Positions 41,163-45,363 of a stretch of 52,425 nt of DNA are shown in pieces. The stretch comes from Bacteroidota bacterium. GTDB lineage: Bacteria > Bacteroidota > Ignavibacteria > UBA10030 > BY39. Location of the stretch: assembly GCA_030017895.1 (NCBI GenBank), contig JASEGV010000011.1:1-52425 (forward strand), written 5' to 3'. A program made the translations under genes and the position numbers. Under the pieces are notes generated by a model. That model ran no database searches and was not told where the DNA came from. It saw only the letters and a program-made list of their open reading frames with translations. Positions within the stretch are counted from its first letter, which is position 1. The number at the start of each line of letters is the position of its first letter.

Positions 41163-41820
41163 CATTTAGTTTCCAGTTTATTCACGAGACCATCACCAGA
41201 GCGGCGACTCTGGGGCTTGAAGTTGATGTTACTCACCTGCTCGAAAATTCTTTTAAATACACTCCACATCTTGAATTAAGCCAACCCTCTTTCACAAAAC
41301 ATGATTTAATTAACTCTCAAAAAATTCCCCACTCGAAATAATTATCATTTCAGAAAAATTGAATACGGAAATAAAAAAATAACTTATTGATAAATAAAGA
41401 GTTATAGATACGTTAATAGTAAAATGGGTGCTAAATTGGGGAGAACGAGGGTTCAGAATCCGATCCGGGCGTTGAGCGTGTCGAAACGCCATTACTGGTG
41501 AGATCAGAAAACGGTTGCCTTTACGAGCTCATCAAGCACGAAAGAGTAGGATGAAAGATTACCAAATTGCCTCATCTTGCAAGCCCAGCAAGTAAACAGT
41601 GTGCAAACTAAAAGATGTCTTTCGATTCAACATACCCTTTTCCTTTTTTTCCTTATACATAAAAATTTTAAAAAGAGTTGCAAAAACGACATTAGAAAAA
41701 TGGGTTATACATTTTGGAGAACAGCAGCTTAGTTGAAAATTTTTTATTATTTTGGGAAAGCAATAGATTTTAAAGGCGGGACTAACCTATGTATAACGCG
41801 CAAGTCCAAAAAGTAAAAAT
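41163..41820. other. Long gene-poor stretch with a possible coding relic and one dispersed hairpin
   Basis: No convincing gene is present. From 41168 to 41341 the plus strand is open and protein-like (HETITRAATLGLEVDVTHLL ... stop), a possible C-terminal relic without a start; I cannot name the family. At 41468-41490 GGCGTT and AACGCC arms surround GAGCGTGTCGA, a dispersed-repeat-like word. The last ~180 bases are AT-rich and end in the operator-promoter at 41821. The minus-strand ORF at 41310-41492 is made from these pieces and I do not accept it. Confidence 0.5.
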
Positions 41821-41867
41821 AATACCTCAATTGAGGTATTGACATCTGAGCTTCTATGCCTTATATT
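41821..41867 (+). promoter_or_regulatory. Operator-promoter 1 of the Cys-rich module
   Basis: A perfect 20-bp palindrome AATACCTCAATTGAGGTATT (41821-41840) overlaps the -35 TTGACA (41839-41844). TATATT (41862-41867) lies 17 bases on. The overlap of an uninterrupted palindrome with the -35 box suggests control by a dimeric repressor. The same arrangement occurs at 43238 and 44658. Confidence 0.8.
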
Positions 41868-41900
41868 TAACCAAAATAAGTAGCCAAAGAAAAAAATAAA

Positions 41901-42281
41901 ATGAAGAATAATTATTTCATAATTTTTGGAATATTTTTTGGTTTCCTTAGCAGCTACATATTAACGTCATGTGATGGCACAAATGAAATAATCGGTGAAA
42001 GTTGTTGTGACAAAATTACTATGTCTAAACCGATAGGCCCTGTAGATGACGTTTGTGGAAGAAATGCTTGTGATGTTATTTTTACGAATTGTAATACGTG
42101 CTGCTTAGAAACGATTTGGACAAAGGTTTGTATGTTCCATCGGTATGATGGGTCGTGCGGAGGAAACGGAAGTGGATATTGTGGAACTCATAGATGTAAT
42201 GCCTGTTTCGGTGACAGGTGCAAATGTGTGGTAAGCTTATGTTATTGTCGTAGTGATGTACTACCGCCGCCGCTATATTAA
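41901..42281 (+). CDS. Small Cys-rich predicted lipoprotein, module copy 1
   Basis: A 126-residue protein with a hydrophobic leader and lipobox-like ILTSC (Cys24). The mature part has about 16 further cysteines in ~100 residues, including ESCCDK, CNTCC and the C-terminal signature C-x4-C-x2-C-x4-C-x-C-x4-C-x-C (YCGTHRCNACFGDRCKC then VVSLCYC). Such density means disulphides or metal binding outside the cytoplasm. I recognise no family. The second copy at 43306 keeps the C-terminal Cys pattern but little else. The leader RNA carries AGCCAAAG just before the start, also found in the other copies. The TPR-like gene follows after 29 bases with its own AAGGAG site. Confidence 0.8.
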   Translation: MKNNYFIIFGIFFGFLSSYILTSCDGTNEIIGESCCDKITMSKPIGPVDDVCGRNACDVIFTNCNTCCLETIWTKVCMFHRYDGSCGGNGSGYCGTHRCNACFGDRCKCVVSLCYCRSDVLPPPLY

Positions 42282-42310
42282 AAATTTTATTTTAGAAGGA
42301 GAAAAAAGTT

Positions 42311-43111
42311 ATGACTAAGTATATTTTATTTATTTTTATAATAAATATTTTCATTATTAGCAACATTGGCTTTTCTCAAACGCTCGATGAAATAATAGAA
42401 AAATTTACCGCATCACAAGAGGTTGATTCACTGCTTAGGTATTATCGACTTCCCGATCCAAGGCTTGACTTTTCAAAAGAAGAACAGAAAGATAAAAATA
42501 AAATTATGGAAATTGAGGACAGATATATTGCGCGTGCTGATGAAATGTTGAAAAAGGGACAGTTACCGAATAATAATGAGTTTCAAACTTATTTTTATGG
42601 CAAATTAGGAGTTTCTTATTTACATAAGAAGGAATACGACAAGTCAATTTATTATTTTAATGAAGCAAACGAAAAAGCAAAAACTATGCAACCTGATTTA
42701 CAAAAAGCTTACATTGCCGGTATCGAAATGTTTCTAATAGGTGCCTATTCTGCTACAAATAAATATATAAATTCTTTGCAACTTGCGAAGAAAGCTATTG
42801 TACTATATCAAGACATAGGAAAAGGCAAATTAAAAAATTCACTTGCGGTTTCCAGTGTGAGTGAGTATGTTGATGCTGCAAAAGGTTTAGGTTGGAGTGT
42901 TAGGTCGATTGAAGATTCTTTACAAGAAATAAGCAATGCCTATATGAACGAAGTTGGTTGTGCTGCGGATTTTCAATTATTACTCTTAGCGCAAGAACAA
43001 AAAAATAAAACTCGGGTTGAAGCACTGAAAAATAGAATTTTGACTCGTTACCCAAAAACGTGGGAATATACAATTATTTATGAAAGTTATTTTGATGCTG
43101 TCCTAAAATAA
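42311..43111 (+). CDS. Secreted TPR-like helical protein, module copy 1
   Basis: A 266-residue protein with a signal peptide (ILFIFIINIFIISNIGFSQ) and helical-repeat text of TPR type (GKLGVSYLHKKEYDKSIYYF, AGIEMFLIGAYSATNKYINSL, ALKNRILTRYPKTWEYTIIY). It pairs with the Cys-rich gene in both copies of the module. Its last 50 residues differ from copy 2 at only three positions, whereas the rest is diverged. A scaffold, chaperone or receptor role for the Cys-rich partner is a guess from context. AAGGAG (42296-42301) precedes the ATG. Confidence 0.8.
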   Translation: MTKYILFIFIINIFIISNIGFSQTLDEIIEKFTASQEVDSLLRYYRLPDPRLDFSKEEQKDKNKIMEIEDRYIARADEMLKKGQLPNNNEFQTYFYGKLGVSYLHKKEYDKSIYYFNEANEKAKTMQPDLQKAYIAGIEMFLIGAYSATNKYINSLQLAKKAIVLYQDIGKGKLKNSLAVSSVSEYVDAAKGLGWSVRSIEDSLQEISNAYMNEVGCAADFQLLLLAQEQKNKTRVEALKNRILTRYPKTWEYTIIYESYFDAVLK

Positions 43112-43285
43112 CAATATTTTAATAGTTGAACTTGTGATAAATATATCAATAAAATCAAGGGATGACAAGGTTTTATTTAATGACCGACAAAAACGGGCGA
43201 AACAAAAAACTAACTTTTTAATGCGTATAAATTAAAAAATACCTCAAATGAGGTATTGACTTCTGAACTTTTCTGACTTATATTT
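43112..43285. repeat. Intergenic direct repeat of the module, copy A
   Basis: From the stop codon through the promoter this region matches 44514-44705 with small indels. Shared blocks include aacaatattttaatagttga, atcaataaaatcaaggga, ggttttatttaatgaccgac, and aaaactaactttttaatgcg. It marks a tandem duplication unit of about 1.4 kb. Confidence 0.85.
43238..43284 (+). promoter_or_regulatory. Operator-promoter 2 of the Cys-rich module
   Basis: Near-perfect palindrome AATACCTCA-AA-TGAGGTATT (43238-43257) overlaps TTGACT (43256-43261). TATATT (43279-43284) follows after 17 bases, also reading as TATATTTG. Confidence 0.8.
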
Positions 43286-43305
43286 GAGCAAATTTAGGAG
43301 CCAAA

Positions 43306-43695
43306 GTGTTTAAAAATTGTATGGTAATGGCAATCGTAACCATAACAGTATTTTTAATATTCGGTTATTCTTTATCGTGTCGAGATGATAAACATTTGTT
43401 AGATACAAATCAAGACCCTGTAAAACAGAAACCCGCACCACCACCTGGTGGTGATTGTTGTTCAGCATCCATGTGTGGAGTTTCTTATTTAAATTGTGGA
43501 CCATTAAAATGTGACAATCCAGATAGTTGGGTAGGATGGATATGTCAATGGCAACAACCTTTTACGTGTAGGGGGGATGGTAATCCTTTTCATTTTTGCA
43601 GCCATCAATGTTTGGGTTGTATAGGAATAGGTTGCCGATGTTTTTTGTCCGCTTGTTATTGCGGTAGGAGTAATCCACTTTTTAAAGAAATTTAA
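43306..43695 (+). CDS. Small Cys-rich secreted protein, module copy 2
   Basis: A 129-residue protein. I take GTG 43306, which has AGGAG five bases upstream; ATG 43321 is the alternative. The leader ends at a lipobox-like YSLSC (Cys25), less canonical than in copy 1. A Pro-rich spacer (KQKPAPPPGG) precedes about 14 cysteines, ending C-x3-C-x2-C-x4-C-x-C-x4-C-x-C (FCSHQCLGCIGIGCRC then FLSACYC). The C-terminal Cys spacing is almost that of copy 1, the clearest sign of homology. Its TPR-like partner follows after 20 bases. No family recognised. Confidence 0.78.
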   Translation: MFKNCMVMAIVTITVFLIFGYSLSCRDDKHLLDTNQDPVKQKPAPPPGGDCCSASMCGVSYLNCGPLKCDNPDSWVGWICQWQQPFTCRGDGNPFHFCSHQCLGCIGIGCRCFLSACYCGRSNPLFKEI

Positions 43696-43715
43696 AAGAA
43701 GAAAGGAATTAATTA

Positions 43716-44513
43716 ATGAGAATTAATTTAGTTATTCAAATTATCTTCCTATTGATATTTATATTATCAACCGGATTCTCCCAGCCAGGTGAGTCAGATA
43801 AGACTATTGATTTACAGGTTTCAGAAAAAGTAGATTCTATAATAAGGGCATTAAAAATTCCGGATATACGACTTGAACTTTCATTTGAAAATAAAAAAAA
43901 TAAAGATATAATTGATGAATATCGCAATAAGTTTATAATCCGTGCGGAGGAAATTATAAGCCAAAACAAAGTACCCAATAATTTTGAATTCCAAGCCTAT
44001 TTTTACGGAATTTTGGGAGCATATTATATTCCCAAGGATATATTAAAATCGTTCATTTACATGAATAAGGCATTGGAAACTACAGAATTAATTACTGATA
44101 ATAGAATTCTTTATCAAGCTCAGATAGAAACATATTTGTTAACAGCTTTTTTAATGGCAGAAAAATTTAAAGATGCATTACAACTATCCGAGAAATTCAT
44201 TGAAAAATACCCAGGGTTAGGAAGTGGTGCATTAAAGAATGCGGTGGCTACGTACGGTGTTAATTCTTACGCTGAATCCTCAAAAAAATCTGGTGTAACG
44301 TATGAAAAAATGAAGAAATATTTAAATACGCTAAGTGAAAAATACTCAAACGAGATAGCGTGTGCTGCGGATTTTCAATTATTACTCTTAGCACAAGAAC
44401 AAAAAAATAATACTCGGGTTGAAACACTGAAAAATAGAATTTTGACTCGTTATCCAAAAACGTGGGAATACACAATTATTTATGAAAGCTACTTTGATAC
44501 TGTCCTAAAATAA
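43716..44513 (+). CDS. Secreted TPR-like helical protein, module copy 2
   Basis: A 265-residue paralogue of the 42311 gene with a signal peptide (IIFLLIFILSTGFSQ). Copy-specific N-terminal and middle parts keep the landmarks (VDSIIRALKIPDIRLELSFE, NEFQAYFYG-like NNFEFQAYFYGILGAYY). The C-terminal 50 residues, from CAADFQLLLLAQEQ onward, are almost identical to copy 1 in protein and DNA. The match continues past the stop codon into the intergenic repeat. That sharp contrast points to gene conversion or a recombinational junction there. Confidence 0.8.
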   Translation: MRINLVIQIIFLLIFILSTGFSQPGESDKTIDLQVSEKVDSIIRALKIPDIRLELSFENKKNKDIIDEYRNKFIIRAEEIISQNKVPNNFEFQAYFYGILGAYYIPKDILKSFIYMNKALETTELITDNRILYQAQIETYLLTAFLMAEKFKDALQLSEKFIEKYPGLGSGALKNAVATYGVNSYAESSKKSGVTYEKMKKYLNTLSEKYSNEIACAADFQLLLLAQEQKNNTRVETLKNRILTRYPKTWEYTIIYESYFDTVLK

Positions 44514-44705
44514 CAATATTTTAATAGTTGAACCTGTGCTAAATATACGAAACAACAAAAAAAATATCAATAAAATCAAGGGATACAAGGTTTTATTTAA
44601 TGACCGACAAAAACGGGTGGAACGAAAAACTAACTTTTTAATGCGTATAAATCAAAAAATACCTCAAATGAGGTATTGACTTTTGAACTTTTCTGACTTA
44701 TATTA
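44514..44705. repeat. Intergenic direct repeat of the module, copy B
   Basis: Second copy of the region at 43112-43285, with an extra ~18 bases (gaaacaacaaaaaaaat) in its first third. It ends in the third operator-promoter, but no Cys-rich gene follows. Confidence 0.85.
44658..44704 (+). promoter_or_regulatory. Operator-promoter 3 (orphan)
   Basis: The palindrome at 44658-44677 is identical to that of promoter 2, with TTGACT (44676-44681), 17 bases, TATATT (44699-44704). Downstream there is no protein gene on this strand, only a hairpin region. Confidence 0.75.
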
Positions 44706-44710
44706 ACACA

Positions 44711-44800
44711 AAATTTAAAGCCAAAGAGTTAAAAAAATGGTGTGATCGCTCGGGAGGCGGAAAATACCAGGAACTTATAAAAAAACTCTTTGGCTTTTGT
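44711..44800 (+). ncRNA. Possible small RNA or abortive transcript from the orphan promoter
   Basis: Predicted to start about seven bases after the third -10 box. AAAGCCAAAGAGTT (44717-44730) pairs with AACTCTTTGGCTTT (44784-44797) through 14 bp, closing a 53-nt loop that ends near TTTTGTATTTT. The first arm contains the AGCCAAAG leader word shared by the two gene-bearing units. An ATG inside is followed two codons later by TGA. The stem also works on the minus strand, as a terminator for the arginine decarboxylase gene. Transcription from the orphan promoter is not proven. Confidence 0.4.
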
Positions 44801-44817: not shown

Positions 44818-45363
44818 TTACGGAAGGAGAATAGCACAGGATATCACTGTAGTCCATAAACCATTTTTATCACCTTCAGCCGATTGGGTGATATTAAAAG
44901 TTTTAACTATTTTACCACTCATTTTGTATGTTTTTTCGCGTTCATCCCATGCGTCATCAGGATTAAATTCGAGACCTAAGGTGGAAGCAAGCATAGTAGC
45001 TGCTAAATCTTCAGCATATTCACCTGCCTTCTCGTCAGTCTCTCCAAACGGATGATGCTCTGACAGGTAACCGTATTGAGTTGCATCTGCCGGAGTTGCT
45101 ACACCAATCGAAGCCGCAATCAAGCGGTTCGGTTCATTTGTGGAGTTTCGAGCCATTACACAAAATGTAATTTCGCCCGGTTGCAATAATTTTGAACCCT
45201 CATCAACTGTTACTCTTTTACAACCGGGGGGAAAAATGCTCGATACAGTTACTAAATTACTTTTCTCGATCTTAGCATCGCGTAATGCAATTTCGAAAGA
45301 TTGAAGGTAGTCTTTATGTTTACCTACTCCTTTTGTAAAAAATATTTTTGCGGGAACATACAA
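44818..45363 (-). CDS. pdaD: Pyruvoyl-dependent arginine decarboxylase
   Basis: A 181-residue proenzyme: [20 protein letters not shown], then [14 protein letters not shown] with the self-cleavage Ser-Ser (S41-S42), which yields a pyruvoyl group on the new beta-chain terminus. [27 protein letters not shown] and [14 protein letters not shown] follow, together with the C-terminal Glu region. It makes agmatine from arginine, the first step of polyamine synthesis. This archaeal-type enzyme is known in Chlorobi, Bacteroidetes and Chlamydiae. It lies 24 bases after tyrS in the same direction. Confidence 0.95.

What the first reader, a model, noticed from the sequence alone, without database searches (positions are those of the whole stretch)
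41821..44800. Duplicated module of a Cys-rich predicted lipoprotein plus a secreted TPR-like protein under a palindromic operator
Two consecutive units each contain operator-promoter, a ~127-residue exported protein with 14-16 cysteines, and a ~265-residue exported TPR-like protein, with a third promoter after them. The Cys proteins share only the C-terminal spacing C-x3/4-C-x2-C-x4-C-x-C-x4-C-x-C. I recognise neither partner as a named family. A fast-diverging Cys-rich product, a more conserved partner and tight regulation are what one expects of a secreted effector, surface adhesin or metal-binding system. That functional reading is inference.
Basis: partly seen in the sequence, partly recalled or inferred. 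Interest (0 to 1): 0.75.

Follow-up and report, generated by a model that had tools for sequence, protein, structure and literature searches.

The report
Cys-protein cassettes and a small RNA
Three copies of one switchable promoter sit in a row in this bacterium: two drive pairs of exported proteins (a cysteine-rich one and a helical-repeat one) that duplicate, diverge and decay quickly, and the third drives an uncatalogued small RNA, which is the most conserved part.

Summary
In detail: two units (palindrome, promoter, Cys-rich exported protein, TPR-like exported protein) plus a third promoter, and these are the only three such palindromes in the 3.2-Mb genome. Four findings change its meaning. 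(1) The palindrome has the 7-2-7 layout of NarL-family response-regulator sites, centred at -43.5. Related boxes in other genomes often adjoin NarL-type regulator genes. The sister species has one directly upstream; the window keeps only a truncated remnant. (2) The third promoter leads into a structured ~80-nt RNA, absent from Rfam, that is conserved in another genus with its own box but without the proteins. (3) Unit 2 lies between ~370-bp direct repeats (TPR 3' end plus promoter) that are 90-92% identical, while the payload between them has diverged to 30-40% amino-acid identity. It looks like a recombining cassette. (4) The Cys/TPR pair is rare (3 of 391 genomes of the class) but recurs, again tandem and partly broken, in another family of the order. 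A model supports the TPR fold. Biochemical function is unproven; I favour a disulfide-rich envelope product with a dedicated TPR partner.

The parts
41180..41335 (+). Remnant (52 codons) of a NarL/LuxR-type regulator gene, intact in sister species G004 (P0007)
   Evidence: 60% identity to P0007 residues 1-52; DNA alignment with L012
41350..41780 (.). Sequence that replaces the middle of the regulator gene; includes a dispersed repeat
   Evidence: Does not align with G004 until ~41770; 78% copy at G000:C2:46360-46481
41821..41867 (+). Box 1 (7-2-7 TACCTCA-AT-TGAGGTA) and promoter TTGACA-17-TATATT; predicted start 41874
41882..41889 (+). Leader octamer AGCCAAAG, kept in all six units compared
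41901..42281 (+). Cys1: Cys-rich predicted lipoprotein, 126 aa
42311..43111 (+). TPR1: exported TPR-like solenoid, 266 aa
   Evidence: Weak Pfam TPR; AF2 pLDDT 77; Foldseek TPR matches
42959..43319 (+). Direct repeat, copy 1: TPR1 3' end, intergenic, box 2, promoter, leader
   Evidence: 90-92% identical to copy 2
43238..43284 (+). Box 2 and promoter TTGACT-17-TATATT; predicted start 43291
43306..43695 (+). Cys2: Cys-rich exported protein, 129 aa (ATG 43321 alternative start)
43716..44513 (+). TPR2: exported TPR-like protein, 265 aa
44361..44739 (+). Direct repeat, copy 2: TPR2 3' end, intergenic, box 3, promoter, leader
44658..44704 (+). Box 3 and promoter TTGACT-17-TATATT; predicted start 44711
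44718..44798 (+). Structured small RNA: 13-bp stem (44718-44730 with 44784-44796), inner hairpin, U-rich tail
   Evidence: z = -4.05; core identical in G004; homologue in another genus; not in Rfam

Best explanation
A patch of a regulon controlled by a NarL/FixJ-family regulator. The regulator binds a 7-2-7 palindrome touching the -35 element (centre -43.5) and switches on three adjacent transcripts: two cassettes, each encoding a disulfide-rich exported (lipo)protein and its exported TPR-solenoid partner, and one stand-alone ~80-nt structured RNA. Shown by sequence: boxes, promoters, RNA and its conservation, the regulator next to the box in the sister species, the repeats around unit 2, and the recurrence of Cys+TPR in another family. 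Inferred: that this regulator class binds and activates; that unit 2 arose or is exchanged by recombination between the repeats; that TPR scaffolds or receives its cognate Cys protein in the envelope; that the pair is a fast-turnover envelope product (competition, recognition or adhesion). The RNA is probably the constant output, like GacA-driven Rsm RNAs in logic but not in sequence.
For: Box layout equals NarL 7-2-7 sites; the engineered NarL site is TACCCCTAAAGGGGTA (PMC4549865) and relatives carry TACCCCTAATGGGGTA. A single site at -44.5 suffices for NarL-dependent induction in ogt derivatives (PMC9314961); here -43.5. 32 relaxed boxes in 98 genomes against 1 for the reversed pattern. NarL-type genes sit in 9 of 21 distinct box loci against 1 of 26 other loci (Fisher p = 0.001 computed with 9 of 20). 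In G004 and G007 the regulator gene directly precedes the box. RNA conserved with its own box in another genus. Repeats 90-92% identical around a payload at 30-40% aa identity. Cys+TPR pair, tandem and repeat-flanked, in G011. TPR fold.
Against: No binding, expression or interaction data. The regulator gene is broken in the window genome; another paralogue would have to act. P0007 has a degenerate receiver, so classical phospho-control is unlikely. The box could also work as a minus-strand terminator hairpin. Covariation in the RNA is not significant with three sequences. In G004 the Cys and TPR genes both look broken, so the pair may be dispensable. Box-regulator counts are not from fully independent genera and the control loci are not a random sample.
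Confidence: 0.5

Rival explanations
1. The Cys/TPR units are decaying tandem duplicates of a lineage-specific envelope protein pair with no cassette exchange; ordinary gene conversion homogenised the repeats and the pair is under weak selection.
For: dN/dS about 0.42-0.44 for both genes against G004; broken copies in G004 and G011; patchy distribution.
Against: 17 of 18 Cys columns are kept between the species although overall identity is 81%; both window copies are intact; pairing is kept across families.
Confidence: 0.3
2. The Cys proteins are extracytoplasmic metal-binding (metallothionein-like) proteins and TPR is a docking partner.
For: CxC-x4-CxC clusters; 14-16 Cys in the mature protein.
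Against: No metallothionein or other Pfam match; no metal transporter or metal regulator gene within the module; exported location favours disulfides.
Confidence: 0.15
3. The RNA is only a terminator or a leftover 5' end of a third Cys/TPR unit, not a functional RNA.
For: It lies between convergent genes; its leader and start-codon position resemble those of the Cys genes (ATGGTGTGA).
Against: Conserved at another genomic site in another genus with its own box and promoter and no Cys or TPR gene in the 3 kb read; the 40-nt core is identical in G004 while the flanks changed; the short reading frame is not conserved.
Confidence: 0.12
4. The palindromes are repressor operators or minus-strand terminators rather than activator boxes.
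For: Position touching -35 could also block RNA polymerase; a T-run follows the hairpin on the minus strand; promoter hexamers are near consensus and might not need an activator.
Against: Fixed -43.5 position in all three promoters; the 7-2-7 sequence and linkage to NarL-type genes; no minus-strand gene runs into boxes 1 and 2.
Confidence: 0.2

Closest known systems
E. coli NarL/NarP 7-2-7 promoters (ogt1052 derivative, yeaR, napF)
   Same: Inverted heptamers TACYYMT-like separated by 2 bp, single site near -44, NarL-family regulator
   Different: Other phylum; nitrate control not implied; linked regulator P0007 lacks the phospho-acceptor; targets are exported proteins and an RNA
GacA-RsmY/RsmZ small RNAs of Pseudomonas
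   Same: NarL/FixJ-family regulator with a palindromic upstream element driving a small structured RNA
   Different: GacA element TGTAAG-N6-CTTACA lies far upstream (PMC4950607); no series of GGA hairpin loops shown here; no sequence relation
Sister-genus operon: Cys peptide + 6-bladed propeller (DUF5128) + ABC transporter (G002 L100, G001 L099)
   Same: Same box class; exported Cys peptide followed by an exported repeat protein; duplicated and partly broken
   Different: Unrelated sequences; propeller instead of TPR; transporter genes present; far shorter Cys peptide
TPR solenoids (KLC1, Rap/NprR, LapB)
   Same: Predicted fold
   Different: Low global TM-scores (about 0.34-0.55); exported; no sequence relation

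Membership tests
NarL/FixJ-type 7-2-7 regulatory site | Two inverted heptamers TACYYMT separated by 2 bp | tested here: met
   TACCTCA-AT-TGAGGTA (6 of 7 per heptamer); relatives TACCCCT-AA-TGGGGTA
NarL/FixJ-type 7-2-7 regulatory site | Position compatible with activation | tested here: met
   Centre -43.5 from predicted starts; E. coli ogt1052 -44.5
NarL/FixJ-type 7-2-7 regulatory site | Linked NarL-family regulator | tested here: met
   Intact in G004, G007, G022, G055-57, G068-70; in the window only a remnant
NarL/FixJ-type 7-2-7 regulatory site | Regulator binds the site | not testable with these tools
   Needs gel shift or DAP-seq
Classical phospho-responsive response regulator (for P0007) | Receiver acidic pair, acceptor Asp, conserved Lys | tested here: not met
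   All replaced in alignment with relatives; HTH kept
TPR protein | Pfam TPR above gathering score | tested here: not met
   Best hits below cut-off
TPR protein | Stacked helix-turn-helix solenoid | tested here: met
   AF2 pLDDT 77, pTM 0.74; best Foldseek hit E 5e-4, prob 1.0, TPR
GacA-Rsm small RNAs | GacA element TGTAAG-N6-CTTACA | tested here: not met
   Box sequence differs
GacA-Rsm small RNAs | Several exposed GGA hairpin loops that bind RsmA/CsrA | tested here: inconclusive
   One hairpin loop CGGGA only; CsrA presence not searched
Metallothionein or other known Cys-rich family | Match to a curated family | tested here: not met
   None in Pfam, NCBIfam, PHROGs, PADLOC; PDB hits chance-level
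Known Rfam RNA family | Score above gathering threshold | tested here: not met
Recombining cassette / effector-partner array | Variable payload between conserved repeats, differing among strains | tested here: inconclusive
   Repeat-payload contrast present in the window and in G011, but too few genomes to see exchange

The most novel reading that the evidence does not exclude
A response-regulator-driven system of uncharacterised Bacteroidota in which one box class switches on an unknown family of small structured RNA together with exchangeable cassettes of a disulfide-rich exported protein and its dedicated exported repeat-protein partner (TPR here, beta-propeller in the sister genus), with the RNA tuning the cassettes through the leader octamer AGCCAAAG that they share.
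Probability: 0.2. Interest if true: 0.75.

Novelty: new variant of a known kind. Interest (0 to 1): 0.5.

Why it matters
It gives a concrete regulator class to a palindromic promoter found across an order of mostly uncultured Bacteroidota, adds an RNA family not in Rfam, and shows a recurring pairing of exported Cys-rich proteins with exported repeat proteins that duplicate and decay fast, as expected of envelope proteins in competition or recognition. It turns hypothetical proteins into a testable regulon.

Tried and rejected
Known families for either protein: none above cut-off in Pfam, NCBIfam, PHROGs or PADLOC; PDB profile hits of the Cys family are chance-level. Weak Cys hits in G016, G135, G212, G225, G276 and others are off-frame or full of stops and were rejected. 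A weak RNA-model hit in G298 is an ordinary terminator-like hairpin. Partial matches to the RNA query in G013 and G003 are chance. Viral contigs and plasmids gave nothing. RNA-leader antisense pairing: duplex energies beat shuffles (0 of 200) but cofolding gains only about 2 kcal/mol over the separate strands, so it stays a weak idea. The AF2 model of the Cys protein failed (pLDDT 37). Literature on the pair: nothing relevant.
Full report
OBSERVATION. The palindrome AATACCTCAAWTGAGGTATT occurs three times in the 3.2-Mb genome with up to two mismatches, all here, and the operator-promoter string is never found in shuffled windows. Each palindrome runs into a sigma70-like promoter, TTGAC(A/T)-17-TATATT.

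PROTEINS. Cys1 and Cys2 are homologous over most of the mature part (29% identity, 0 of 1000 shuffles as good). TPR1 and TPR2 are 49% identical overall, but this splits into 78/205 identical columns before and 50/56 inside a direct repeat. Neither protein matches a curated family above cut-off. The TPR reading is supported by an AlphaFold model (pLDDT 77, pTM 0.74) whose best Foldseek match is a TPR domain (E 5e-4); global TM-scores are modest. The Cys protein could not be modelled.

CASSETTE LAYOUT. A segment made of the TPR 3' end, intergenic DNA, box, promoter and leader is present twice (42959-43319 and 44361-44739; the two ungapped blocks are 92% and 90% identical). It brackets Cys2 plus most of TPR2, which have diverged to 30-40% amino-acid identity from unit 1. 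So recombination or conversion has kept the flanks alike while the payload differs. In G011, from another family of the order, the same kind of locus recurs: a Cys gene with an in-frame TAG before its last CxC-x4-CxC, followed by a TPR lipoprotein gene, next to a second TPR lipoprotein gene preceded by a Cys remnant; 107-nt repeats (95%), unrelated to those of the window, separate the units. The two G011 TPR proteins have stronger Pfam TPR scores but are not alignable to the window's TPR proteins with confidence, so only the Cys member is shown to be homologous. In the window Cys carries the lipobox and TPR does not; in G011 it is the reverse (sequence reading, not tested).

DISTRIBUTION. Profiles find the Cys family only in G000 (the window genome), G004 (same genus) and G011 among 391 genomes of the class, and only in G000 in a 396-genome sample of the phylum. 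All copies adjoin a TPR gene. In G004 the single unit looks broken: a 1-nt shift in the Cys signal peptide, a 121-bp element with terminal inverted repeats flanked by a duplicated TTATTATC in the TPR signal peptide, and one mismatch in the operator. The two G004 contig ends share 141 identical bases through that element, so I treat them as one locus. A MAG assembly error cannot be excluded for the frameshift.

REGULATOR. Directly upstream of the unit, G004 encodes P0007, a LuxR/NarL-family protein (GerE E = 3.5e-11; closest to two-component regulators of the NarL/FimZ/VraR kind) whose last codons overlap the box. Its receiver has lost the acceptor aspartate, the acidic pair and the conserved lysine when aligned with relatives, while the helix-turn-helix is kept. 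In the window the gene is cut to 52 codons and its middle is replaced by sequence that includes a dispersed repeat. The box has the 7-2-7 layout of NarL sites; the engineered NarL site is TACCCCTAAAGGGGTA (PMC4549865) and relatives carry TACCCCTAATGGGGTA. A single such site at -44.5 is enough for NarL-dependent induction of an E. coli ogt derivative (PMC9314961); here the centre is -43.5 in all three promoters. A relaxed box joined to the start of the -35 occurs 32 times in 98 genomes of the order against once for the reversed control. A NarL-type gene lies in 9 of 21 distinct box loci and in 1 of 26 other loci (Fisher p = 0.001 was computed with 9 of 20; genera are not all independent and controls are not random). 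In G022 and G055-G057 the box lies about 30 nt before the regulator gene; in G004, G007 and G068-G070 it follows the regulator gene. In G007 a histidine kinase gene precedes the regulator and exported-protein genes follow the boxes.

SMALL RNA. The third promoter leads into AAGCCAAAGAGTT...AACTCTTTGGCTT, a 13-bp stem around an inner hairpin, followed by a U-rich tail (fold z = -4.05). The 40-nt core is identical in G004 although the flanks carry changes. A homologue in another genus (G001; L017 and L047, minus strand) keeps the core, the stem (one pair changed on both sides), its own box ATACCGCAAATGGGGTAT and a TTGACA-TATATT promoter, with no Cys or TPR gene in the 3 kb read and no Cys motif in 15 kb. 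There is no Rfam match. A short frame is open in G001 but reads ATG-GTG-TGA in the window, so it is not a conserved peptide. With three sequences, covariation is not significant.

SISTER GENUS. In G002 the box precedes a Cys-peptide remnant (C-x6-C-x3-C-x13-C-x3-C-x6-C), an exported propeller-like protein, ABC transporter genes, an intact exported Cys peptide with the same spacing, and a DUF5128 propeller; G001 has the propeller and ABC genes with a decayed peptide. This suggests, but does not prove, a common theme: the box drives exported Cys-rich small proteins paired with exported repeat proteins.

MECHANISM. Best reading: a NarL-type regulator activates three adjacent transcripts; the RNA is the constant output, and the cassettes are a fast-turnover envelope product made of a disulfide-rich protein and its TPR partner. 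Box and promoter geometry, regulator linkage in relatives, RNA conservation and recurring pairing are shown. Binding, activation, partner interaction, cassette exchange and any role in competition or recognition are inferred. All six units compared share the leader octamer AGCCAAAG, complementary to the 3' arm of the RNA; pairing in trans is possible but the RNA's own stem competes.

VERDICT. Observation confirmed; interpretation partly supported. The most surprising element is the conserved RNA behind the third promoter, and the most testable is the NarL-type box.

Noticed in passing
L006:21-141 and L012 tail (G004): 121-bp element with terminal inverted repeats CTGAAGTTACGCA/TGCGTAACTTCAG and a duplicated TTATTATC inserted in the signal-peptide region of the TPR gene; it also broke the assembly.
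   Followed up: partly
window 41412-41535: Dispersed repeat with a 78% copy at G000:C2:46360-46481 sits inside the former regulator gene; 41396-41446 and 41672-41722 are 75% alike.
   Followed up: partly
L046:1615-1721, 2689-2795, 1-50 (G011): Repeats between the Cys/TPR units look like fragments of a UVR-motif coding region (read by eye).
   Followed up: partly
L100:3914-9341 (G002), L099:1597-6120 (G001): Box-driven operon with exported Cys peptides, DUF5128-type propellers and ABC transporter genes; the peptide family is unnamed and looks like an export or peptide-product cluster.
   Followed up: partly
L101:23-4606 (G007); L078, L079: Histidine kinase + NarL-type regulator directly next to two boxes; several boxes in other families precede exported proteins with apparent C-terminal sorting domains, suggesting an order-wide regulon of surface proteins.
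   Followed up: partly
window 44818-45363 (-): Gene resembling pyruvoyl-dependent arginine decarboxylase (by eye), convergent with the small RNA; same neighbour in G004.
   Followed up: no
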